DNA of 64,000 bases from Bolinopsis microptera. Its lineage: Eukaryota; Ctenophora; Tentaculata; Lobata; Bolinopsidae. The notes beneath the pieces are model-generated. The model worked only from the letters and a program-made list of their open reading frames with translations, made no database searches and was not told the DNA's origin. Positions 25,624 through 59,783 of the stretch are shown piece by piece. Both the position numbers and the translations under genes were made by a program. The stretch is from the NCBI RefSeq assembly GCF_026151205.1, contig NC_087079.1, positions 7,226,169 to 7,290,168 of the forward strand. Direction: 5' to 3'. Numbering within the stretch: position 1 is the stretch's first letter; each line of letters opens with the position of its first letter.

Positions 25624-28600
25624 ATGGGTCAGGCGCAGTCACAACGGCAAGATGACTACGCGATTGAGGGAAGCTCTAATGAGCCGGTTATCATAAGAGA
25701 GGTAAGATGTGACTACGCGATTGAGGGAAGCTCTAATGAGCCGGTTATTATAAGAGAGGTAAGATGACTACGCGATTGAGGGAAGCTCTAATGAGCCGGT
25801 TATTATAAGAGAGGTAAGATGACTACGCGATTGAGGGAAGCTCTAATGAGCCGGTTATCATAAGAGAGGTAAGATGACTACGCGATTGAGGGAAGCTCTA
25901 ATGAGCCGGTTATTATAAGAGAGGTAAGTTTAGGGAGCTCAGCAGTTAAGAAGGTTCTAGAATTCAGAATATTAGAACTTTTAAATGTTTGGCATTAAAG
26001 ATTTCCAGCTTAATGAAGGTTATAGATGTGGATTCTGGTGGGGCATACCATGTAATATGGAATAATTTAATGGATTGATCACGTCATGTCGACTTTCAAG
26101 TAAACAAATATGCCTCACCTCCCCACCAGAGGAGTAGAATTTTCTAGGGTCATATAAGACGTGTAGTGTGCATGTACATATTACAAGTTATAAATGATAT
26201 TACAAGTTATAAATGATATTTTATATTACTGTAATTAAAAAGGAAACTTATTGTATATTGTTTTACATCAAACGACAAAGAAAACATAAAATTATCTTGC
26301 TTCCCATTCTTTAACTTAGTAATCTAACCAGGCATTAATTGCCAGGTACAGGTAATTAATTAATTAATTAATTAATTGCCAGGTACATGTAATTAATTAA
26401 TTAATTGCCAGGTACATGTAATTAATTGATTAATTGCCATGTACAGGTAATTAATTAATTAATTAATTAATTGTCAGGTAATTAATTAATTAATTGATCA
26501 CGGATTGCCAGGTAAAACAAGCAGAGAGACCGCGAGACCAGGTTCCCGTGATACCAGTGCTGTTTAAATGGCAGGAGTCAGTGATGGATCACTACAGTGG
26601 AGTGTGTCTGAGTGGCAACTTTAACAAGTGGGGACGACTTCCTATGAAGTTCTGTGATAACGAGTACATTGAATCTGTTGGTAGGTTCTTAGGTTATTTA
26701 AGTTATTTAATACACATTTGTTTCTTTTTTAACTTTAGATTTGTTTGGAGACGCGAATCATGCACATTTTAAGCTCTTGAATTCTTCGAATAAAATATCA
26801 TCTTTATAGAACCTCCTGAATAGAATTAAGTTTGACTCATATTTAGGTGGAACAAAACAGTCTTAAAAACAAGAATCCCAAAAATTACGTGAAAATAAAT
26901 ATGAATAGAGATTTTTTATTGTCATCAAAAATGCATGAAAAAGTACGACTGTAGAATTTATGCAAAAATAGTAAAACACAGTTACCCCAGTTAGTTACAA
27001 AAATTTACAGAGCGTCTCACTTTCAGATTTGACGCCGGGAACGTACGAATTCAAGTTTTTCGTTGACGGCGAGTGGAAACATGATCCAAAGTTGAACAAC
27101 ATTCCGAACAAATTAGGTAGTTGCCCATTTGAATCCAGTTGATGAATTTGTGGCGAATATTTTTACTTGAGTATTTTATTTTGAAGGTTGAGCTATCAAT
27201 CTCCCTCAAATCTGCCTAGAACTGAACTCTTACTTTACCTTACTTAACTTTATGCTTTTTGGCTGGCCCCTCTCCAACAATAGACTAATGAAAAATTGGC
27301 CTACATTTTCTACACTCTATAACCAGAAATGGTATATTTTTCCCTCTCTTTTGATACTGTGCCTTGTGGTATGCCTGGAATGTATCATGACATTTCGCAG
27401 GCGCTGTTTTTGCATTGAAAATAAGAAAGATTAAAAACTGAATGCAAATTTTTTCTAGACAAAATATAACGGTCACTTTTTACAATTATCTTCTCGAGTG
27501 CTAAATTAAATCAAATCAAGCACTAGTTAACACAGTCAAATTGTCATCATGATTTCTCTGACGTCATACTTGCTGAAAATCTAGGACATTATTCCACGCT
27601 AAGCCTACAAATCAAGTGTGGTTAGTACGACTGTCTTGATATTCGAACATTTCACAAATTCCTTAACTCTCAAAGAACCAGGTGGTTTCAATAACGTTAT
27701 AATGGTAACTAAAGATGATAGCTCGCTCTGTATATCCTGTACGGAAGGAGTTGAGGGAGGTGCTGCCAGGACCTTCAACTACAAGGATTTAGGAGGTTAG
27801 TTTTAATTCACCTAGCACGGTTCACATGGTAACGCTTACTTGCATTCCTGCCCAGGGGGCTATAATATTTATAGATTTCTATGGTCTCCATTCTCGATTT
27901 TACGAAGAGCAGTGATATATGAGGAGCAGGCATTTCCACGACCTCCTCTTTAGATTGGTATCAGTGAGTCTGATGTGTTTTTACTTTATTTGCTGATGAT
28001 CGTGATAACTGCTCTATGATGAATGCTTGTTTTCGCATGTGCTGATCGATTAGTAGTTAATCTAAAAGCGATGATTATTGTCTGTAGAATCTGTGCGGTG
28101 GTCCTAATTTCAGTTTCGTGTCTTTTCTAGAACGGTTAGTTGTCTTGCATCACGAGAGCGCAGAAAATCAACAAAACCCATATACATGTTAAATGTCCAA
28201 CTTTTAGATTATCTGGTGTCAATCCTGCTTCATATATGAAAATTCTCCGGATTTTTCGATAAAATTCTGCTCAAATTACCCTCAGGAGTCAGAATCAAAT
28301 ATAACTTCATTGCAAAATATGCACTCTGGGGGTCCAATGAGCATAATTACACTGAGAAATCCCACAAGTTGTCTGTTGTGACAGAGATTGTAGCCGGTTA
28401 TTAATATTTGTACATTATACATTATACATTATACATTTGTACATTTCAGAGGAGGATCAGAAGTATTCATAATAACCAGTATTAGTAACCATTAGTAACC
28501 ACTACTGGTAACTAGTAGTAACCACTACTAGTAACCAATACTGTTGTGACAGAGATTGTAGCCGGTTATTAATATTTGTACATTTCAGAGGAAGATCAGA

Positions 28601-31600
28601 AGTATTCTGACGATGGCTTCACATCGGAGGTGCCGGACATGGGCATGTACAATAACGCCGGCCCTCCTCCCCAGCTTCCTGTACAATTGAGCAGAGGTAT
28701 CCTCAATTCAGAGACCGACCAGAGCAAAGACCCCACCTTGCTACCAGAACCCCAGGTTTTTGTTTACATGACGGTTGCGGTTGTTATTTGTTGTAAGTGG
28801 CACCCCGTATCTATAGCGAAGATGATGTCGGAGGCGGTTGACAGGATCTTTGATGTTGATGGGAGTTGATGAATCCAGATTTTTGGAACATTTTTGGAAC
28901 ATTTTTGGAACATGTCCCAAAATTGTCCCAAAATTGTCCCAAAAGTGTCCCATGCATTTATTTGCCCTAATAAGCTCTAAATAGTGCCAAAAATAATTGT
29001 AAATGATGGATATAGGTAAAAACTAGGCCTAAGAGCCATCAAAACTCAAATAACATTACCCAGGTTCATGGAATGAACGAAAATGAACAAAAATGAATAT
29101 TGTCCTAAAAATGCTCAGAACGGTTTAAAATTGGTCGGAAAGTGTTTATATTGGTCCTATGACCACTCAAACCAAGTTTGGGAATCACTGCATGTCTAGA
29201 ACCGATGTTACCAATGTTCCAAAATGTTCCAATTTTGTCACAATAATTCTCCTGAGAATCCAGATTTTTGGAACATGGGCACATCGAAGTATTGGCTGTA
29301 TTTAAGTGCTGGGAAGCCTCAATTCGATTTTCTAAGATGAATATATCCGTAAGCTAGGAGTCATCAAAGTCGTATAAAATTACCCATGAAATGACCAGAA
29401 ATGAACAAAAATGAACATTCTTCTCAAAGTGCTCAGAATGGTTTAAAATTGGTCGGAAAGTGTTTATATTGGGCCTAGGACCACTCAAACCAAGTTTGGG
29501 AATCACTGCATGTCTAGAACCGATGTTACCAATGTTCCAAAATGTTCCAATTTTTGCACAATAATTCTCCTGAGAATCCAGATTTTTGGAACATGGGCAC
29601 ATCGAAGTATTGGCTGTATTTAAGTGCTGGGAAGCCTCAATTCGTTTTTCTAAGATGAATATAGGTAAAAACTAGGCCTAAGAGCCAACAAAAGTCAAAT
29701 AATATTACCCAGGTTCATGGAATGAACGAAAATGAACAAAAATGGATATATATGTCCTTAAAATTCTCAGAACGGTTTAAAATTGGTCGGTAAGTGTTTA
29801 TATTGGTCCTAGGACCACTCAAACCAAGTTTGGGAATCACTGCATGTCTAGAACCGATGTTACCAATGTTCCAAAATGTTCCAATTCGAGTGGTCTTAGG
29901 ACCAATACAAACACTTTCCGACCAATTTTAAACCGCTCTGAGCAATTCCAAAGAGTTTACGAAAGAGTCATAAGGCCAATCAACAGACTATTCATTTACT
30001 GTACTGTTAAGATGGTTCGGTATTCTGCACCCCTCGTATCGGTTCTGGGCATGCAGTGATTCCATAAACAGTCAGACAGTCACACAATGTACACCCTATA
30101 TTTAGATCACATCAGTTTCATTTGTATCACATCACTTCGTGTAATAGATGTGTGGAAGCAAATAAAGATGTGATCTGAATAAGGTGATCCGAGCGTAGCA
30201 AGGTTATCCGATCTTATTTGGTGTGATCGGATGTAGAGGCGTAAGATCAGATCAGGTCATCAGCAATAGGATTAACTTAGCAAGCTTGTTAATGAATAAC
30301 AAGAGAATAAATAGATAATTAAGTTATACAAATCATTTTCCCTCTCTGTTAACCACAACAGACACAACGACAGTGAATCCCTTCACTAAATTGATGAGCC
30401 TACCTCTTTATCTACCAGTTCAAAGAAGCACCAGCAGTCCACCTCACTCAAACTTAGAATCAGCGCACATGATCTCCATATTGAAAGAGGCAGATACTCC
30501 AACACACCCCGTGAGCAAAGACTATGTGGTTGGTGCCAATCAAGTATGGGCGTTGAGACCATCGAAGACGAGTCGCATGTTCTTTACATATGTGACTTGT
30601 ATTCAAAACAGAGGTCGAAATTAGTCAAAAATCTTTCTCAAATGCCAATCATTGAAATAAGCAATGAAATCACCGACTCCAGCAATATCAATGAAACAAA
30701 TCTCAAAGATCATCTCATGGAAATTTTGTCTCCTTACTCAACTGTAATTCCTCAAAATCATCAGAGCCTCCATATTCACTGCCACCGCTCACTTGATATT
30801 CAACCAAACACCCCACAGTATATTCAATTTCAAGAAAGGCGCTCCTATGCTGTCAACTGTGTGTGCACTTTTTTCCTTCGCTGCTCCGAAGAGCGAAATA
30901 GTTTCACCGAAGATACGCGTCAGCGTAATTCAAATGCACGAAACTTAAACAATTTTACTATCAATTTGGTGAGAACCTCGCGAATTAGTCATAATTAAGA
31001 CTCAAGGATAACCCTGGCCCTGACTTCAAGCAAAGATGATTGTTTTCATTAACTTCTGTAAACAATTATGACGGTCCATGATAATGGATCTATAATTTAA
31101 TTTTAATCCTGTGTAAATCCTGTGTAAATCCTGTGTAATCCTCAACCAACCCCTTTACCAGCAACCTTCATCCCTCAACCAACTCATTCACCACCAGCCT
31201 ACCTAACGCAACCAACCCCTTCACCAGCAACCTACCTCGCGCCGCTCAACCAACCCTTTCACCTGCAACCTTCATCCCTCAACGAACAAATACAGCTAAT
31301 GATGTCAAAAATTTATATCAATATATTGGGGGATTATTAAAACCAAAATAGTTGCCCAATAAAATAATTTCTGCCTTCTCTTGGAGGTACGTGTGCTAAT
31401 TGTACATAATTCTGAATGCAACTTTAAGACTCTGTTGGACGAAAATATTGACTCTTTGCCACCATTTTCTTACCATTCTGAGCGCTTTAAGGATAATTTT
31501 CATTTTTGTTCATTTTCGTTCATGAACGAAAATGAACAAAAATGAAAATTATCCTTAAAGCGCTCAGAATGGTAAGAAAATGGTGGCAAAGAGTCAATAT

Positions 31601-32889
31601 TTTCGTCCAACAGAATTCCATGAACCTGGGTAATGTTATTTGACTTTTGATGGCTCTTAGACCTAGTTTTTACCTATATCCATCTTAGAAAACCGAATTG
31701 AGGCTTCCCAGCACTTAAATACAACCAATACTTCGATGTGCCCATGTTCCAAAAATCTGGATTCTCAGGAGGATTATTGTGCAAAAATTGGAACATTTTG
31801 GAACATTGGTAACATCGGTTCTAGACATGCAGTGATTCCCAAACTTGGTTTGAGTGGTCCTAGGACTAATATAAACATTTTCCGACCAATTTTAAACCGT
31901 TCTGAGCATTTTTAGGACAATATTCATTTTTGTTCATTTTCGTTCATTCCATGAACCTGGGTAATGTTATTTGAGTTTTGATGGCTCTTAGGCCTAGTTT
32001 TTACCTATATCCATCTTAGAAAACCGAATTGAGGCTTCCCAGCACTTAAATACAGCCAATACTTCGATGTCCCCATGTTCCCAAAATGGTTACAAAAATC
32101 AAAATTGGAACCACCTTCACATCGGTTCTAGACATGCAGTTATTCCCAAACTTGGTTTGAGTGGTCCTAGGACCAATGTAAACACTTTCCGACCCATTTT
32201 AAACCATTCTGAGCACTTTGAGAATAATGTTCATTTTCGTTCATTTCTGGTCATTCCATGGGTAATTTTATACGACTTTTGATGGCTCCTAGGCCTAGCT
32301 TACGGCTATATCCATCTTAGAAAACCGAACTGAGCCTTCCCAGCACTCAAATACGGCCAATACTGCGATGTGCCCATGTTCCAAATTTATGGATTCATCT
32401 ACTGGTTGATGGAACGCGCGATGACTTTCGCAATATTCCAGTGGAAAGCAAACCTATTTTTGCGCGAAGATGCCGCGCACATTTGATTTCGTTTGCTCGT
32501 GTTTTCCATAAATCAATCATGTCAACGAGCAGATGGCCGGTTCAAGGTAAGTCCAGTCTAGTACTGGCTGGCTCAAAGCGCCCAAGCCCCAAACCATACC
32601 TATTCCCTTGGTTTCCAACCATATTACTATCTGTATTCTATATCGCTTGGTCTATCATCGCTGACATGGCCAATATATCAACCCAATTACTGCGAGACAA
32701 TTAATGTTCGTACACTATGAGATTATTCCAGATTTACTCACTATCTCCTCTTTTCAGCACGTCTTATTGAATCACCTATACGCCCTGACCGTGAGAGATG
32801 GAGTAATGGTGCTCGGAGCTACACACCGGTACAAAAGGAAATACGTCACCACCATGCTGTATAAACCTATTTTAAAGAACGAGTATTGA
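25624..32889 (+). CDS. PRKAB: AMP-activated protein kinase, beta subunit (six exons)
   Basis: Scaffold and glycogen-sensing subunit of AMPK. Exons: 25624-25701, 26512-26680, 27027-27116, 27682-27795, 28589-28755, 32758-32889. Phases agree throughout and the joined code is 249 aa (human about 270). Exon 1 starts MGQAQSQ, so Gly2 could be myristoylated as in other beta subunits. Exons 2-3 are the CBM48 glycogen-binding domain (VLFKW, SGNFNKWGRLP, YEFKFFVDGEWKHDP). Exon 4 is a diverged linker. Exons 5-6 are the C-terminal domain that binds the alpha and gamma subunits (LLPEPQ/HVLLNHLYALTVRDG, THRYKRKYVTTMLYKP). The exon 1 donor and exon 2 acceptor both lie in tandem arrays. Intron 5 (4 kb) holds an inverted-repeat element. 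Exon 4's acceptor is weak in pyrimidines. Confidence 0.93.
25654..25930 (+). repeat. Minisatellite spanning the AMPK beta exon 1 donor, five copies
   Basis: Units starting GACTACGCGATTGAGGG at 25654, 25711, 25766, 25821 and 25876; the periods are 57, 55, 55 and 55 bp. Each unit holds the 3' part of exon 1 plus the donor GAG|GTAAG, so there are five equivalent donors. Donor 1 gives the 26-codon exon. Donor 2 (25759) adds 57 nt, that is 19 in-frame codons. Donors 3-5 run into TGA at 25765-25767. Confidence 0.93.
26333..26511 (+). repeat. (TAAT)n / TGCCAGGTA array ending in the exon 2 acceptor
   Basis: Blocks of TTAAT repeats separated by four or five copies of TTGCCAGGTACA[GT]GTAA, or close variants such as TTGTCAGGTAA. 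The last copy, GATTGCCAG|GTAAAAC, is the acceptor of AMPK beta exon 2. Every earlier unit therefore also contains CAG|GTA. Confidence 0.85.
28374..28610 (+). repeat. Duplicated acceptor region of AMPK beta exon 5
   Basis: The segment from GTTGTGACAGAGATTGTAG through TTTCAGAGGA[AG]GATCAGAAG occurs at about 28375-28471 and again at 28542-28602. The first copy has extra TACATTATACAT repeats and carries a decoy acceptor plus the first codons of exon 5. After that it degenerates, so it would not give a useful exon. Confidence 0.85.
30400..30998 (+). mobile_element. LINE remnant, C-terminal end of a non-LTR pol protein
   Basis: The frame carries LRISAHDLHIERGRYSN, then TPREQRLCGWCQSS and VETIEDESHVLYICDLY. 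This is the Cys/His pattern that closes the pol protein of many CR1/Jockey/RTE-type LINEs. It is followed by 120 residues without recognisable motifs and a stop at 30998. The upstream part is lost. It is on the same strand as AMPK beta but inside its intron. Confidence 0.7.
31431..31614. repeat. Perfect 184-bp palindrome (two 92-bp arms, no spacer)
   Basis: The centre is CGTTCA|TGAACG at 31522/31523. Every base from 31431 pairs with its partner up to 31614 without mismatch, and pairing fails at 31430/31615. It lies at the inner edge of the right arm of the intron 5 element. Confidence 0.95.
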
Positions 32890-36500: not shown

Positions 36501-39500
36501 AGGGGGCCGGGGGGGGGGGGAGGTCAGGCCATGATTACGTAATGATGCTGTCAGGAGGAGGGGGGGGGGTTGGGTCTTGATTACGGTTGATTACGGAAGG
36601 GGGGAGGGGGGTAAAAATTGCTCAAATATTGATTACGTAATATGTGAACGACCCCTGTGTTGAAATAACAATGTCATTATATCGCTCGTGTTAAAACCAG
36701 TACCATTTCCAGGAGAGGAGGTAGACATAGACCTGTCCCACAGTGACCAGGACAGCCCTGTAATCTGGCTCCGAGTAGACCCTGACATGTTGTGGCTCAG
36801 TAAGACCTCTATTGAGATGCCGGACTACATGTGGCAGGCTATGTTGTTGCATGAGAGGGATGTAGTTTACCAGCACATGGCTGCAGAGGTTTGTGGAGCT
36901 CACAGTTCAATTGTTTATTGTTTTTGGAGTTACTTTTTAGTACGTTCAAGCTGGTATTTGTCACAGTGTTGTACGTTTGGGGCCACAACTTTCTTTCAGA
37001 TCATTCCACTTTCACTGTTTCAAGGTGAAATGACCTCACACATTTTATCCATCTTATTGCTAACAGTGGTGATAACACTTGTTGCAAAACTGTCAAGAAG
37101 CACAATCGTTCCGTGTCACGTAAACAGTATCGTTTATGCTAGTCCCTCCCTGTCTGTTATTATCACTATTTAAACTCATTGCTTCGTCTAACCTTCCAGT
37201 CAGAGTTCGCACCAGAAATCTTCTAAAACTTCTGAAAATTGAGAAATGTCAAAAAATAATGAGAAATGTCAAAAAATAATGTAGATTGGATAGAGGAGCA
37301 AGGAATTTGGGTAGTGTTAGGAAGTGTTTAGTCTTAACTCTTAGCCGTCGTACAGCCTACAGCTTTCAAGGCTGAAATATTAGAATTCGGGAAATTGGAA
37401 GTGCTGTGAGATCACATCTTTTTGTTAAGCCTAACTGACCTGTTAGTGATAGTGTAGATAATTGGATTGAGAACAGAGTTGAGGAAGAGGAACTCCTGAG
37501 CTGCAAGGAGGTACCATGAAGGGATGGGATGGGTGGGGTCCAGGGTCTGCAACCCTATCCTGACTACAACTGGTGTAGCTGAGAAAACAAACGCCCACGT
37601 GACACAGCTCACTGTGACCAGAGCAGCTCTCCCTGGCAAACGTCCAGACTTACCCTTGATCGTGGCTATCACCAGAATAGCTATATTGGAGATAGGTAGT
37701 ATAACAGTAGGTAGCACGACCCAGTAGCAGACCATAGACAAGAGATACGTTATGGTGGTTTTAGTCGGGGAAAGTGATATAGAAATCTCACAAGAACCAA
37801 ACTGTGGGTCGAACACGTAGTGAGCTCCAACAGCATGGTAGCAGAAATTAAGGACAGCAGAGAGTCCCACGATAACACCCAGCAAGACTGCCCCGTGACG
37901 TTTTGTGACGTCACGTGCCCTGAACGGAGCTACAAGAGTAAACAAACGGTACAGGGAGATAGCTGCCACCACATGCATCTCCGCCTGGGTGCAGACATAG
38001 GACGCGAACCCGCTGATCCAGCAGCCTACAGGCCCTGTAACCCAGCCTCCCGCCATCAGGGATAACCAGATCGAGGACATGAAGAACAACACAACACTCA
38101 GATCAAGCGCTGCAAGACCCTGCAGCAGGACTATTGACACAGAGTCTACTGCGAGACTGTTGTACTTTATAGACCCGTAGAGAACCAGGCTGTTTCCTAT
38201 AAGTCCTATCATTATTGCTAGTGTGTGGTAGAGAAGAAGGAGGTTGAATCCTAGTTTTGATATTCCGAGATCGAGTGGGTTGTTGAGGCTGGTTGAGTTT
38301 ACAAATATCATTTCCTCAAGTTGTCCTACAAAGTAGATTGCTAATTAGCTGCATACAAGTTACTGAAACGCTATGTACATTAATTACTATTGTTATGGAA
38401 CAGTACATATACTGAGCGCTTACCCATGTGACATAAACGTGTCCAATATTCTTACATCACATGCTCCTTCAGTCGGTCATAATATGCTGATGACCAATTC
38501 GTCAATAATTATAGAAAATAATCGATACAGTCCGGCCTGAGATAGATCAACAAGGACAACAATATCATGTAGGTGTTAAACCGCAAAACAATGACCTGAT
38601 TTACAAAAATGAGTCTTCGAGACCTCTTAAAAATGTATTTATAACTGAAGCCTTTTCGTTCTGAACACATAATATGCTTGTACGCGGTATATTTCGCACT
38701 ATTATGACTCGACATGTGATCTCAAGTGAATTCCAAGAATAACATAGTGTCATAATCGAAATTAGAGTCTTATGAATCGGGTATGAAAAAGATGATATCT
38801 TCTTATTTTTGGCTAATAATCACTTTATGGCCAGCTGCGAGCAGATGGAAGGTTAACAAATATTGAATTCAGTTGAATTCAATATTTTACGCTTAAACGA
38901 TTACATCAGAAAACTGGGGAACCAGTCGTGATAAAAACAATGTACATTTTACGTATTAATCGAGAAAAACGATTCCAATACAAACAAAGTTATAAAACTA
39001 ATTATAACTATGAATACTTCTTAACCAAGATATCCACAAACAATCTGTAATACATGTCCTGTAAAGGTTCGTGTGCCGGAAATCAATAAAGTGAAACGTT
39101 TGTGGCTAAAAACCATGAAAGCAGCCAAAAAACATACTGATATCATATTTGGGATAACTTCACGGTCACTAATAGGATAATTATGCGTTTTGTAGCGAGG
39201 ATTTAACTAAAAGTAACTTACTGCAAAGACACAAAATCTCGATATCTAACAACAAGGTTATCAAATTTTTAAGAGGGATACTCTTCTACTTACTCGGTGA
39301 TATAATGTATAATTTTTGTATTATGACAATAAAGTTTGTTCCGCATTTCAACGTGACCTATTAATTCATCCTTATTCCTGAACCTAAGGACGATATGGGA
39401 CGCCGGACAATATGTATGTTATATCCTGCAATGACCTTTAAACTGACCTGGGCCTCACTAAGGAAGTAATACGCTCAAGTACTGTTACCGATCAGGAAGA

Positions 39501-42500
39501 GGGTTGGTCAGGCTGATGCCACGTGCTGCCTGCTGTCTGCACGTGCTGCCTGCACGTGAAGTGGCGAACCTTGACTCGCGAAACGCCACAATCATACAGC
39601 TGTTGCCTTATAATACCTTTCAATCAATGCTTTACTACATCTCCTACCAATACGGCTAAGGACAAGGTTTGTCAAATTTTAATAAAAGGATGAGACATAT
39701 TTTTTCAACAATACTCTCAAATGGAATGTCTAGCAAGAGCGGTCCTACGGAGTGCTGAATATCACAATATAATCTTTATCTTTACTATATATATACTTAT
39801 AGGGGGGGGGGGGGGGGGGGTACAGCTGTTGCCTTTTAATACTGTTTTATCAATGCTTTACTGTCTCTTCAACAACGACGGCTAAGGACAAGTTTTGTCA
39901 ACCTTCAAACTGAGGACAAGAGTGATTTTCACTCTGAAATTAGATGGTAACTAGCAAGATCGCCTTCTGGAGTCTGGATTAATACACCAAATTTACAACT
40001 GGCTGGTTTATCTGAAAACTCTTTGGCCACATCTAACACTGTAAGGAGGTAAACTTTCTGTTCACACTGGAATAAGGTGAATGTTCCCATCATCGATAAA
40101 GGCCAGGGTCAACGCCTTGGTTCTAATGATTGTCGAAGATATGAATATATTATATTATATTCTTAATGCTGTAAGTTATCTAAAAATGTCATGTATCTTC
40201 TTAAATTAATCGACCAGCATCCTTTGAATAAATTTCCCCAAATTATATTCAAAGGAGTGCTGAAGATTACATAATCCCTATAATAGCTAATTATGCTTTA
40301 TATTGATATGTATATCAATCGAATATTTTAGATTAATAATAATGGACATGATAATATCAGTAGATAAATCTAGAACAATAAAACTGAAAACATACCTGTT
40401 GGTCTAATTCCGCAGCGCGGTACCTGCTGATAGTAAAACAAACTGCCTTCTGAGTTCACAGTACAGGTCACATGACTATCTCCCGAGATAACAACATACC
40501 CCTCCTGTCTACATTCCACTAGAACAGTTTGTCCTGGAGTGACTGGAGTGGTGTTGGGGGTGATGTGGGACCAGGAGCTGGGGAGAGAGGAGCTGGGGAG
40601 AGAGGAGCTGGGGAAAGAAGAGCTGGGGAAAGAAGAGCTGGGGAGAGAGGAGCTGGGGAGAGAGGAACTGGGGAAAGAAGAGCTGGGGAAAGAAGAGCTG
40701 GGGAGAGAGGAGCTGGGGAGAGAGGAGCTGGGGAGAGAGGAGCTGGGGAGAGAGGAGCTGGGGAGAGAGGAGCTGGGGAGAGAGGTGCTGGGGAGAGAGG
40801 AGCTGGGGAGAGAGGAGCTGGAAAGAGAGGTGCAGTAGATTTTTGAGGATATCCTGTAGGTGACGTCGAAGAAGTTGAGTGGTTGGTTATTGTTCCCTTT
40901 GTTGTAGGAGTATAGGTAGACGTTGATAGCCTTGATGTTGGAGGTTGAGATGATGTCTTTCCATCGGTTTAATTTAGAGGAGTCTCTGAATCCTGTTGCT
41001 GGCTGGAGGTTGTTTAATGTAGCAAAGGGCTTCGTTGTAACGTCCCACGTGATCAAAACAGACTCAGTTTCAACTGACATCGTTCCTAGAGATGTTGTGT
41101 CTACAATCTTATTAATATTTTCGGGTCCGTCAATCAAAGCCAGTTGCGATTTTCTAACTTTTCCGCTGTTAATGTCATGAAAAACTCGAACAGATGCAAC
41201 GTAATCGAGAGTTCCTTGAACTTGATCACTGCTCTGGTTGTAGAGAGTTGCGTAGATGGTAAATTTCACATCTTCCTTTAGGAGAGATTCTTTGTTTTTC
41301 ACGGCGAATTTAAATTCCACAGATTCTTCTACTGGGTCGAAGAAGAAGAGATCAGGATCTCTTTCATATGATAGAGTCTTTCTGAGTTTCGATTTAGTTC
41401 TTTCCTTGGGAATTTTCCACTCTGAAATTATGGTAATTACGTTGTCATTGATCACAAACAGTCGACCGATTTAAGACGAGATGTTTATATAAGACGAGAT
41501 GTTTACATAAAACAAACGATGTGTAATTTCTTTTCTCTTCTCAACAGGGGTCCTGGGGTCTCAATAACACTCGGACCCCAGAAATGCAAAATGGTAAAAT
41601 AATAATACGACAAAACATGGCAAGGAAGTAGGAACATTGTTCGCCCATTAACGTCAATTTTAGACATAGTGCCTACCTTTACCATGAAGATTCCCTGTGA
41701 GCAGGTCCAGTAAGGTCACTAGAACCAACACAGAGAAGATTCTCATCGTAACGACTAAGAGCAGTTAATCGTGAAAATGCTAAATAATCTTACCCAGACA
41801 AAAATATGTGTAAATCATCGCATAAGGCATTGGCGCTCTCTAAAAATGAAGCCTTGCATTCAGTTAGCCTGTGTAAAACTTGACCATTTATCGTGAGTCT
41901 GGATCCATAAACAACAAACCTTGCTGATGGCAAGCTAATGGTGTTATTAAGTAGGATAATGCCACTGTTCCTCGGCGTTTATTCTTTGGCAAGTGATCTA
42001 CTCATCTACTAGCACTGTGAGTCCGGAACTGTGAGTCCGGAAATGTGAGTCCGGAACTGTTCATTTTAATCCACCACGTTAGAATACTAAAGACTGCTTA
42101 TCTACGTGTTTGGGTCATGAATCACGCTGAATTTGTAAGTATCTGAATTGTTATCAGGTTCCAATTCCATACACTTGTTGAATATTGTGACTAAAATATG
42201 CCTAAACCCCTCATTGAGGTTTGTATGTTTAATCTTTACCACTAGGCGATTTACCGAGACTATGTCGTTACCCTCTTTAGCATTCACCCTCTTTTATTAT
42301 CTTCGCGTGTTATGATATTCAGCTCAGACACTTCGTCATAGTGGAGTATTGTGGGGCTAGCTTATTAGTCGTCAGCTAGTCATCAGCTAGTCACATTATT
42401 TCTAAGTTTCATGCGGAGAGGCTGCATTGGAGACATGTAATGTCTGCTTCAAGCTGGAGTTGGAGCAAACGTTCCGGTTTGATGCTGTATTTTAGAGGCT

Positions 42501-44506
42501 TATTTCATGTCTGGGAAAATGAATTAAACTTGTGTTAAACATATGATCAACCTAGAAATCGGATATACAACGACCACCATTAAATACTCCCAACCACACA
42601 CACATGCTCATTGTTCAGCTTCAAGTAGTCTCATTACTTACTCTTACTTTATTTCAGGTAAGTAGTCCCATTACTTACTCTTACCTTATTTCAGGTAAGT
42701 AGTCCCATTACTTACTCTTACCTTATTTCAGGTAAGTAGTCCCATTACTTACTCTTACCTTATTTCAGGTAAGTAGTCTCATTACTTACTCTTACCTTAT
42801 TTCAGGTAAGTAGTCCCATTACTTACTCTTACCTTATTTCAGGTAAGTAGTCCCATTACTTACTCTTACCTTATTTCAGGTAAGTAGTCCCATTACTTAC
42901 TCTTACCTTATTTCAGGTAAGTAGTCCCATTACTTACTCTTACCTTATTTCAGGTAAGTAGTCCCATTACTTACTCTTACCTTATTTCAGGTGCTACCGA
43001 ATTTCCCCTCCCAAGGCACCATCACCACCCTCAGCACTGTACTTCTTGATGAGAAGTGCTACTACCAGGTTAGCAGTGAACTGCATTCTTATACTGTGAT
43101 ATAATAGAGTGGTCGCTATCCGTTGTAATGGTCAGCTAATTTTGATTTTTATATGATTGTAAAATACATATTGTTTTGCCCCAACATTTTGCCTTCATTC
43201 TCCCCCTTGCCCAGGTGCGGATACAAGCCCTAAAGTCCCTGGCAACCTGTATATCAATCTCAGGGGACCCCACTGTTAACGAGGAGGTCCTGATCAGTCT
43301 CTACCGGAAGTTATACGGAAGTGTTGATAACGAGAAGTTCACGAGAATGAACGACTTCAGCGATTTCCCGCTTTATTTTATACAGCAAGAGTTCATGAGA
43401 GCGATAGGTTTGGGGGCTTTTGAATTTATTGTTAAATACTGGGCTTACTGTTTACTGCTTACTGCTTTACTGCTTATGATATTTAAGTTTTAACACACAT
43501 AATATTTTACATTTTTACATTTCAAAAAGAATCTTTTAACAAACTTATATTTAAACAAAAATCACAAATTTTGCCAATACTAGCGTTTTGCCGATGCTAA
43601 ATTTGCTAAATTTGCAACAAATAAAATACTGTAAGTGTAACTATCACAACAACTTCAGGTCAGATAAAAGTAGCTGGGAGTACAACTCCAAGAATCGTCC
43701 AATTCCTCTACCAGCAGCTTTACTACAACGACAACCAGCGGAACGAATTCGATGACAGCTGGATGATAGTAGCTATAATAGATGGGCTAACTCACACTGT
43801 GCCCCACAAAGTAGACTACAAAATGGAGATAAATCTGAAACATGTTAAGCAAGTCCTCCCTAAAATAGTGTGTTATCTGAATATAGATAAGAAGATGCCC
43901 AGTTACCAGCAGATTATATCAGGGGCTTGTTTACGGTTCATTTCAAAGCTTATTCAGTACGGGCACATCATGGACAATCTGAAGGATAGCTCGATATTTA
44001 GCGCGCATCTGAAGCGGGGTCAGTCGTTCCACGTGCGCTGCACGGCAATACAACTTCTCGCACTGTTCATAAAAAACGAGAGCTCGGAGCGGGATCTGAA
44101 CACTATTTTGTCTCTGATAGAGTTCGATCAGTCTCCCTTTATCCGGTGCCACGCAGTACAGGAGCTCTACAAACTACCACTATTCACAAAACACCAGGAC
44201 TGTTTCCTCAACAACCTCCACTTAGTCGAGCGACTGTGGAGACTGCTGAATGAGCACCAGGACTTTAACTTGAGGTGTTGTCTAGCACAGCTATACTACA
44301 CGTTATACGGCAGGACCACGCCCACGTGCGTGCCTACTAATAACTGCGCTGTTGTGATAGACCTTAAGGGGCAGACAGCCAGGACTAATGTACCGGGTAT
44401 TCCGTCCAGTTTCAGGTTCAGCGCTAAGTTTGATGATGATCGGAAGTATAGTTCGGATGATAGTACTTCGAGTAGGAAGAAGAAGAAACACAGGCCCATG
44501 TCTTGA
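33504..44506 (+). CDS. TAF2: Transcription initiation factor TFIID subunit 2 (seven exons)
   Basis: TAF2 is the aminopeptidase-like TFIID subunit that contacts Initiator DNA with TAF1. Exons: 33504-33981, 34136-35349, 35520-35604, 36713-36888, 42991-43068, 43215-43407, 43659-44506. They sum to 3072 nt, 1023 aa, with all phases matching (human about 1199 aa). Diagnostic stretches are [20 protein letters not shown] (M1 fold start), [31 protein letters not shown] and the C-terminal HEAT-like repeats ending in a lysine-rich KKKKHRPMS. The zinc-peptidase HEXXH is absent, as usual in TAF2. The human C-terminal His/Lys tail is shortened. Intron 4 (6.1 kb) contains two genes on the opposite strand and ends in a 37-bp repeat array. 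It lies 615 bp downstream of AMPK beta on the same strand. Confidence 0.95.
35605..36712. other. TAF2 intron 3
   Basis: No gene. It holds the GGGGTCG inverted-repeat element and a short piece (about 36425-36480) related to the AGCATGAAACG.GGAGAAAAG repeat of the 50-kb element. Confidence 0.7.
36172..36655. mobile_element. 484-bp element with perfect 26-bp terminal inverted repeats
   Basis: Begins GGGGTCGTTCACATATTACG and continues TAATCA; the last 26 bp are the exact reverse complement. The interior has several G-rich runs and repeats of TTGATTACG. No coding capacity, and no certain target duplication. A shorter relative is at 8968-9067. It fits a MITE-type non-autonomous DNA transposon. Confidence 0.88.
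37412..38311 (-). CDS. Class A (rhodopsin-type) G-protein-coupled receptor, single exon
   Basis: 299 aa with seven hydrophobic segments. TM1 has GN (39-40). TM2 has LAALD with the sodium-site Asp70. C97 before TM3 and C174 in the second extracellular loop can form the usual disulfide. TM3 ends SLYR (119-122) in place of DRY. TM6 carries the proline (P247). TM7 has NPIIY (282-286). N5 (NST) is an N-glycosylation site. The tail is very short (RSVRLNKKM) and lacks a palmitoylation cysteine. It lies antisense within TAF2 intron 4. The ligand cannot be told from sequence. Confidence 0.92.
   Translation of the reverse strand: MIFVNSTSLNNPLDLGISKLGFNLLLLYHTLAIMIGLIGNSLVLYGSIKYNSLAVDSVSIVLLQGLAALDLSVVLFFMSSIWLSLMAGGWVTGPVGCWISGFASYVCTQAEMHVVAAISLYRLFTLVAPFRARDVTKRHGAVLLGVIVGLSAVLNFCYHAVGAHYVFDPQFGSCEISISLSPTKTTITYLLSMVCYWVVLPTVILPISNIAILVIATIKGKSGRLPGRAALVTVSCVTWAFVFSATPVVVRIGLQTLDPTHPIPSWYLLAAQEFLFLNSVLNPIIYTITNRSVRLNKKM
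38320..40365. other. Non-coding part of TAF2 intron 4
   Basis: Downstream exons of the CCP-domain gene (minus strand) are expected here, but I cannot identify them. There is a direct repeat of about 80 bp: TACAGCTGTTGCCTT[AT]TAATA starts at 39595 and 39821. A G19 tract (39802-39820) abuts the second copy. Confidence 0.5.
40397..41746 (-). CDS. Secreted or membrane mucin-like protein with a CCP/sushi half-domain (partial)
   Basis: Minus strand. Exon 1, 41746-41683, encodes a signal peptide ([19 protein letters not shown]). It splices in phase 1 (G|GTAAAG) to exon 2, which begins at 41421 after ATTTCAG. Exon 2 has about 200 residues of unknown fold, then about 17 Ser-Ser-Ser-Leu/Phe-Pro units. 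It ends in three cysteines spaced as C2-C4 of a CCP domain ([15 protein letters not shown]). A strong donor ACAG|GTATGT follows (GT at 40396/40395), so more exons lie at lower coordinates. The Ser/Pro tract stands between a lone Cys (KIYC) and the CCP C2, as though it had grown inside a CCP loop. It is nested antisense in TAF2 intron 4. Function unknown; probably extracellular, O-glycosylated. Confidence 0.72.
40569..40836 (-). repeat. 15-bp coding minisatellite (Ser-Ser-Ser-Leu/Phe-Pro), about 17 units
   Basis: Plus-strand unit GGAGCTGGGGAGAGA with an A/G variant (GGGAAAGAA) that changes Leu to Phe. It is kept in frame in the CCP-domain gene. Confidence 0.95.
41750..42610. other. TAF2 intron 4, non-coding; probable promoter side of the nested gene
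   Basis: No gene seen. A short triplicate GTGAGTCCGGAA occurs at 42018-42055. Confidence 0.45.
42621..42990 (+). repeat. 37-bp array of stacked splice sites at the end of TAF2 intron 4
   Basis: Ten units of exactly 37 bp, each running GTAAGTAGTCCCATTACTTA...TTATTTCAG (the first is diverged). There are nine internal junctions reading CAG|GTAAGT (donors at 42658, 42695, 42732, 42769, 42806, 42843, 42880, 42917, 42954). The last unit provides the acceptor (CAG at 42988-42990) of exon 5. Each junction has a pyrimidine-rich acceptor and a consensus donor, the layout of a recursive-splicing ratchet point. Retaining any unit would break the frame, since 37 is not a multiple of three. Confidence 0.96.

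Positions 44507-45383: not shown

Positions 45384-59783
<14,400 letters not shown>

What the first reader, a model, noticed from the sequence alone, without database searches (positions are those of the whole stretch)
42621..42990. Ten stacked 37-bp units, each an acceptor fused to a donor (CAG|GTAAGT), before TAF2 exon 5
Seen: nine internal junctions with pyrimidine-rich TTATTTCAG directly followed by the consensus donor GTAAGT, at exact 37-bp spacing, the last unit serving exon 5. Known: recursive splicing in long insect and vertebrate introns uses single AG|GT ratchet points with this layout. Inference: the 6.1-kb intron could be removed in steps through any of nine zero-length exons, or the array buffers acceptor choice. 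A tandemly amplified ratchet site is, as far as I know, undescribed.
Basis: partly seen in the sequence, partly recalled or inferred. Interest (0 to 1): 0.9.

Follow-up and report, generated by a model that had tools for sequence, protein, structure and literature searches.

The report
Minisatellite that copied a splice junction
A short stretch covering the end of an intron and the first two letters of the next exon has been copied head to tail ten times in an animal gene, giving nine look-alike splice points; this is most likely a by-product of repeat growth of a kind reported in lancelets, and the extra splice signals are predicted to fold up and hide themselves.

Summary
The array is real: ten 37-bp units at 42623-42992, nine CAG|GTAAGT junctions and a tenth, CAG|GTGCTA, the predicted acceptor of TAF2 exon 5. 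In the 264.65-Mb assembly, pairs of TTTCAGGTAAGT 10-40 bases apart were found only here.

"Undescribed" is too strong. Minisatellite duplications of intron/exon borders that multiply AG/GT signals are known in amphioxus as "mirages". This genome is rich in minisatellites (10.8% of 264 kb examined), AGGT is not enriched in its tandem clusters, and a neighbouring AMPK-beta gene has border arrays at both ends of one intron.

The perfect donor is a fusion product: exon 5's GT joined to intronic AAGT. Each donor is predicted to be locked in a 9-bp hairpin with ATTACTTAC of its own unit, tighter than 26 of 26 other GTRAGT words of the window's + strand; 1 of 1500 shuffled units was as closed.

Best reading: a tolerated bystander with self-masked donors, where occasional use of an internal acceptor is corrected silently because a donor is regenerated. 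True multi-step ratcheting is possible but unproven and oddly placed. No RNA data could be consulted.

The parts
42623..42992 (+). Array of ten 37-bp units (last 35 nt of the intron plus GT of exon 5)
42652..42663 (+). First of nine TTTCAG|GTAAGT junctions (others start at 42689, 42726, 42763, 42800, 42837, 42874, 42911, 42948)
42658..42678 (+). Example of the predicted donor-masking hairpin GTAAGTAGT-CCC-ATTACTTAC (9 pairs, one G-U), repeated in each later unit; unit 5 has CTC as loop
   Evidence: predicted:
42970..42974 (+). Branch-point-like CTTAC of the terminal unit, its A 18 nt before exon 5; present in every unit
   Evidence: sequence; function inferred
42982..42990 (+). Terminal acceptor TTATTTCAG before exon 5
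42991..43069 (+). TAF2 exon 5 (VLPNFPSQG...CYYQ), first bases GT shared with the repeat unit
36889..42990 (+). Host intron of 6102 nt with a weak donor GTTTGT
   Evidence: borders inferred

Best explanation
A minisatellite grew across the 3' border of this TAF2 intron. The duplicated unit is the last 35 nt of the intron (branch-point-like CTTAC, pyrimidine-rich tract, AG) plus the first two bases of exon 5 (GT). Head-to-tail joining puts that GT before intronic AAGT, so every internal junction reads CAG|GTAAGT: the perfect donor is a by-product of where the duplication ended (shown by the register). Each such donor can pair with ATTACTTAC of its own unit, a stretch resembling the 5' end of U1 snRNA (recalled), in a 9-bp hairpin that would hide the donor and the branch-point-like site together (predicted, not measured). 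I infer that most transcripts join exon 4 straight to 42991, and that an internal acceptor used by mistake leaves a donor exactly at the join, which can be spliced again to a later acceptor without trace in the mRNA. The array is then a tolerated bystander of the mirage kind, not an adaptation for recursive splicing.
For: Exact register and fusion point. Border arrays in the neighbouring AMPK-beta gene at both ends of one intron. Minisatellites cover 10.8% of 264 kb examined; AGGT is not over-represented in tandem clusters (15, against 7-28 for the 11 other orders of the same letters). Local folding closes 9 of 9 internal donors more than 26 of 26 other GTRAGT words on the window's + strand; 1 of 1500 shuffled units as closed, 16 of 1500 as stable by single-unit energy; whole stretch z = -9.4. 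Unrepaired use of an internal acceptor gives a frameshift (one unit kept) or an in-frame TAG (two or more kept). Amphioxus mirages are reported not to disturb splicing (passages).
Against: The hairpin does not explain acceptor choice: the terminal CAG is no more open (0.018) than internal ones (0.025-0.058), and the first six bases of exon 5 are also mostly closed (0.0012); only the terminal pyrimidine tract is more open (0.58) than in units 2-9 (0.29-0.33), but less than in unit 1 (0.79) (120/80 setting). AMPK-beta donors are not masked (0.15-0.26), so masking is not general here. The array donors are the best U1 matches measured (-11.8 kcal/mol against -5.6 to -7.1 for three TAF2 donors) and all nine are intact, which recursive use would also predict. 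Outside the window no AGGTRAG array was found in 200 kb. Nothing shows absence of selection.
Confidence: 0.66

Rival explanations
1. Tandem ratchet: recursive splicing in use. Exon 4, with its weak GTTTGT donor, joins an internal acceptor, gains a GTAAGT donor, and is spliced on to 42991.
For: Acceptor and consensus donor juxtaposed nine times; each site has a further donor 37 nt behind it, as the hidden exon of a ratchet point needs (definition); the exon 4 donor is weak and the array donor strong; strict form found nowhere else in the assembly.
Against: Sites sit 37-333 nt before exon 5 and so do not divide the intron; donors predicted closed; the last piece of 37 nt is probably too short to splice (recalled); similar border arrays nearby lack a fused consensus donor on the acceptor side.
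Confidence: 0.12
2. Acceptor buffer: the ten branch-point/tract/AG sets raise the chance that the weak-donor intron is recognised, the donors being incidental.
For: Every unit holds a full set of acceptor-like signals; exon 4 has a weak donor.
Against: Acceptors other than the last give a broken frame unless repaired; no sign of selection can be tested.
Confidence: 0.14
3. The array is structured RNA or DNA with a role of its own (processing, chromatin, antisense).
For: Strong fold, z = -9.4; antisense donor-like words.
Against: No Rfam match in the window; the fold follows from self-complementary units repeated ten times.
Confidence: 0.04
4. Assembly artefact or wrong exon border.
For: No reads or transcripts seen.
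Against: 370 bp is short, with three base differences among the units; the protein alignment runs through the junction.
Confidence: 0.04

Closest known systems
Amphioxus 'mirage' minisatellites (Adh3, globins BflGb6 and BflGb9, TnC, similar repeats in PGBD5)
   Same: Tandem duplication of an intron/exon border inside a gene, several AG/GT signals in a row, apparently tolerated (passages).
   Different: Here only 2 nt of exon are in the unit, and the join makes a consensus GTAAGT donor at every internal junction, with a self-pairing stem. Reported units are 10-72 bp (Adh3), 150-160 bp (globins) and 60 and 108 bp (PGBD5). The organism of the window is not identified.
Recursive-splicing ratchet points (Drosophila, mammals)
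   Same: Acceptor directly followed by a strong donor; splicing to it regenerates a donor (passages).
   Different: Described as points within long introns, for example two evenly spaced in a ~50-kb kuz intron; here nine lie within 300 nt at the end of a 6.1-kb intron, and use is not shown.
Intron gain by tandem AGGT duplication (Rogers model; ATP2A1, potato RdRp, fission-yeast 24-bp repeats)
   Same: Tandem duplication of a segment with AGGT yields GT...AG blocks (passages).
   Different: There the segment is exonic or brings an exon along; here 35 of 37 nt are intron and the mRNA is predicted unchanged.
Donor-hiding RNA hairpins (such as tau exon 10, SMN2 exon 7; recalled, not looked up)
   Same: By prediction it works like them: a local stem covers a 5' splice site.
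   Different: There a real exon is regulated; here nine decoy donors would be silenced. No probing data.

Membership tests
Mirage minisatellite | Minisatellite-like tandem units inside a gene | tested here: met
Mirage minisatellite | Units span an intron/exon border | tested here: met
   35 intronic + 2 exonic nt per unit; border by homology to TAF2
Mirage minisatellite | Repeated AG/GT splice signals | tested here: met
   10 of 10 units end CAG|GT
Mirage minisatellite | Inner units homogenised, edge units diverged | tested here: inconclusive
   Unit 1 has 2 differences, unit 5 has 1, the other eight none; the other edge, unit 10, is not diverged
Mirage minisatellite | Length differences between haplotypes | not testable with these tools
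   one copy in the assembly, no reads
Mirage minisatellite | Normal splicing despite the repeats | not testable with these tools
   no transcript data
Recursive-splicing ratchet point | Juxtaposed acceptor and donor | tested here: met
   nine sites
Recursive-splicing ratchet point | Hidden exon with a donor behind the site, the site's own donor being stronger | tested here: inconclusive
   A donor follows at 37 nt, but for 8 of 9 sites it is the identical GTAAGT of the next unit; only the last site faces a weaker one, that of exon 5
Recursive-splicing ratchet point | Lies within a long intron and splits it into sizeable steps (typical rather than strictly required) | tested here: not met
   all nine within 333 nt of exon 5 in a 6102-nt intron
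Recursive-splicing ratchet point | Splicing intermediates, sawtooth coverage, lariats | not testable with these tools
   no RNA data
Recursive-splicing ratchet point | Evolutionary conservation | not testable with these tools
   no relatives of this genome are held
Rogers-type intron gain | Duplication of an exonic segment with AGGT | tested here: not met
   35 of 37 nt per unit are intronic
Donor-masking hairpin | Stable stem covering the 5' splice site | tested here: met
   prediction only:
Donor-masking hairpin | Disrupting the stem changes splicing | not testable with these tools
   needs a minigene

The most novel reading that the evidence does not exclude
A tandemly amplified ratchet site in use: exon 4 joins any of nine internal acceptors, each join replaces its weak donor by a strong one, and self-paired stems keep the donors of unused units silent. 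A repeat that ought to break the gene would thus be a self-correcting landing strip for an intron with a weak donor.
Probability: 0.12. Interest if true: 0.82.

Novelty: new variant of a known kind. Interest (0 to 1): 0.5.

Why it matters
Ten nearly identical, complete acceptors in a row, nine of them followed by the same perfect donor, are a natural experiment on how the spliceosome picks one AG among equals. They also pose the question of whether a repeat of a splice border is survivable because it repairs itself (a zero-length exon) or because its donors fold away. The idea that a duplication ending in AG|GTAAGT cancels itself while one ending in another word does harm gives a testable rule for which border minisatellites survive. 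If it is only a mirage, it adds a case in a genome rich in minisatellites; whether that genome is outside the lancelets was not tested.

Tried and rejected
Special affinity of repeats for AG|GT: not supported by the sample. AGGT gives 15 tandem clusters of three or more in 264 kb, both strands; the 11 other orders of the letters give 7 to 28. Of the 15, two are the TAF2 array on its two strands, two are pieces of one 58-bp array that crosses the window's left edge, and two overlap in L014. AGGTRAG recurs in 2 of 93 arrays of period 20 or more; the reversed word and five scrambled words give 0, 0, 0, 0, 2 and 3. Both AGGTRAG arrays lie in the window, none in the 20 stretches of 10 kb.

Hairpin as selector of the terminal AG: not supported, the terminal CAG is not more open. 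Hairpin masking as a general property of border arrays: not supported, AMPK-beta donors are open. Hairpin-driven slippage as a general cause: single-stranded DNA units give z = -3.7 (TAF2), -0.3 and -1.1 (AMPK-beta).

Antisense function: the other strand has AGGTRAG nine times in the array, a consequence of CTTACC in nine units; no Rfam family reaches its gathering score in the window. A plasmid search gave no match.

Not obtained: a genome-wide count of looser pairs (CAGGTAAG) and this genome's own U1 snRNA. The server was busy at each attempt, so the U1 5' end used is recalled. Whether three border arrays in one window exceed chance was not computed: there is no full gene model to count borders.

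Organism: not established. Contigs C1-C8 of 16.3-26.2 Mb, 264.65 Mb in total, much tandem repeat and genes nested in introns would suit a ctenophore (passages of PMC8527503), but this is a guess.

Full report
Observation. The array is as described apart from a two-base register. Tandem Repeats Finder reports 42623-42992, period 37, ten copies, 98% matches, no indels. TTTCAGGTAAGT occurs nine times in the window, all in the array; shuffles expect 0.51 and reach at most 4 in 100. The ten CAG ends lie at 42657 to 42990 in steps of 37. Eight of ten units are identical; unit 1 has two differences and unit 5 one. In the whole assembly (264,652,675 bases, 232 contigs) TTATTTCAGGTAAGTAGT has nine matches, all here. 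Two TTTCAGGTAAGT separated by 10-40 bases give eight matches, all neighbouring junctions of this array, with 0 for the reversed control pattern. The tool warns that its counts can be lower bounds and that simple or very common words are skipped. Looser patterns could not be searched.

Gene context. The reading frames before and after the array join in phase 0 (...[14 protein letters not shown]...), and the joined peptide aligns to human TAF2 through the junction without a gap (E = 1.3e-26). Exon 4 ends at 36888 with GAG|GTTTGT, exon 5 starts at 42991, exon 6 at 43215. These borders are inferred; no transcript was available. The donors taken for exons 3, 4 and 5 pair weakly with U1 (-5.6, -5.8, -7.1 kcal/mol) against -11.8 for the array donor (the U1 5' end is recalled). 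The intron also contains an uninterrupted 7tm_1 receptor frame on the other strand, 37412-38344.

Anatomy and origin. The bases before 42623 and after 42992 both break the repeat, so the register is fixed. The unit is the last 35 nt of the intron plus GT, the first two bases of exon 5. Each unit holds a branch-point-like CTTAC whose A lies 18 nt before the border, a pyrimidine-rich tract and AG. Joining units head to tail puts the exon's GT before intronic AAGT and so makes GTAAGT. The consensus donor exists because of where the duplication ended; no microhomology is left at that join. In the AMPK-beta donor array the two edges share AAG (inferences).

Background. Tandem arrays of period 20-500 cover 10.8% of the 264 kb examined (window plus 20 x 10 kb of the same genome; 8.4% of the window), in 93 non-overlapping arrays. 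AGGT is not over-represented in tandem clusters (15 against 7-28 for the other 11 letter orders). AGGTRAG recurs in 2 of 93 arrays against 0-3 for six control words. Both of those are in this window; the 200 kb outside gave none.

Comparators in the window. An AMPK-beta gene (PF16561 and PF04739) begins with MGQAQSQRQDDYAIEGSSNEPVIIRE, ending at 25701 before GTAAGATG. This exon end is repeated in five units (donors at 25702, 25759, 25814, 25869, 25924). Only the first two donors lie before the stop of that frame, which ends at 25767. The next exon starts in frame at 26512 (GTAAAACAAGCAG), right behind imperfect AT-rich units of about 29-37 bp, most with ATTGCCAG|GTACA, one with CCATGT and one with TCAGGTAATT (26334-26495). 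So three border arrays lie in two genes, two of them at the two ends of one intron. Which AMPK-beta donor is used is not shown.

Folding. The stretch 42600-43070 folds at -116.8 kcal/mol, z = -9.4, 0 of 100 shuffles as stable. The local element is GUAAGUAGU-CCC-AUUACUUAC, nine pairs with one G-U, which covers the donor; a competing stem CUUACC...GGUAAG covers it too. With three window settings, each internal donor is open with probability below 0.0001, and 26 of 26 other GTRAGT words on the window's + strand are more open (compared at the 120/80 setting; these are words, not proven donors). With GTAAGT and TTTCAG kept and the other 25 nt shuffled, 1 of 1500 tandem arrays was as closed (median 0.0012), while 16 of 1500 single units folded as stably. 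As single-stranded DNA the TAF2 unit also folds better than chance (z = -3.7), the AMPK-beta units do not (-0.3, -1.1).

Results against the masking idea. The terminal CAG is not more open than the internal ones, and the first six bases of exon 5 are mostly closed as well. AMPK-beta donors are open, 0.15-0.26. Masking can explain silent donors, not acceptor choice, and it is special to this array.

Consequences of use. Keeping one unit shifts the frame and reaches a stop in exon 5; keeping two or more meets an in-frame TAG. An internal acceptor is therefore harmless only if its regenerated donor is used in a second step. The sites lie 37-333 nt before exon 5, so such a step is a repair rather than a division of a long intron. 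From the last internal junction only 37 nt remain, probably too short to splice (recalled).

Literature. Border repeats are known as mirages in amphioxus. I read passages of PMC3087553 (duplicated borders in two globin genes, Adh3 repeats of 10-72 bp, no interference with regular splicing in RT-PCR, length instability, a proposed role in intron gain) and of PMC3902484 (PGBD5, Adh, TnC). The original Adh paper is not held and is known to me only through these. Tandem AGGT duplication as a source of introns: passages of PMC4974935. Ratchet points and their hidden exons: passages of PMC8605326. Nested genes, tandem repeats (13%) and 13 chromosomes in a ctenophore: passages of PMC8527503. Searches for tandem ratchets: 0 papers; 712 papers with two of four terms, none of the 15 listed with 'recursive splic'; 1 paper, listing only. 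The library is partial.

Verdict. By layout it belongs with mirage minisatellites, as a variant in which the fused join is a consensus donor that pairs with its own unit. Recursive splicing through it cannot be excluded without RNA data; of the ratchet-point features tested, the juxtaposed sites are met, the donor hierarchy is mixed and the placement in the intron is not met. I put the bystander reading with occasional silent repair at 0.66.

Noticed in passing
25649-25928: AMPK-beta exon 1 donor repeated five times (55-57 bp units, GAGAG|GTAAGATG, last GTAAGTTT): a donor-side border array; only the first two donors lie before the stop of the frame.
   Followed up: partly
26334-26520: Imperfect AT-rich array, most units ATTGCCAG|GTACA, ending at the in-frame acceptor of AMPK-beta exon 2 (GT at 26512): the same intron has border arrays at both ends.
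   Followed up: partly
1-672 and L009:6097-10000: A 58-bp minisatellite with ACAG|GTACTTG in most units, continuing about 3.9 kb to the left of the window; relation to a gene unknown.
   Followed up: partly
42623-42992, minus strand: The antisense strand of the TAF2 array carries AAG|GTAAGAG, a donor-like word, in nine units because CTTACC is part of them.
   Followed up: no
37412-38344 (minus): Uninterrupted 7tm_1 receptor frame nested in the TAF2 intron on the other strand (PF00001, E = 1.3e-21); another 7tm_1 frame lies at 46631-47851 (minus, E = 5.6e-08).
   Followed up: partly
40370-41470 (minus): 366-aa open frame in the TAF2 intron with a 15-bp repeat (17 copies, LPSSS); no Pfam match at 0.01.
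   Followed up: no
29020-32282: 318-bp repeats and related frames (ILENRIEASQHLN...) in both orientations, probably a dispersed repeat family.
   Followed up: no
L025:57-1751; L014:6010-7071 (minus); L019:9043-9197: Further tandem clusters with AGGT words (38, 36 and 4 members) in the 10-kb samples; not checked against exons.
   Followed up: no
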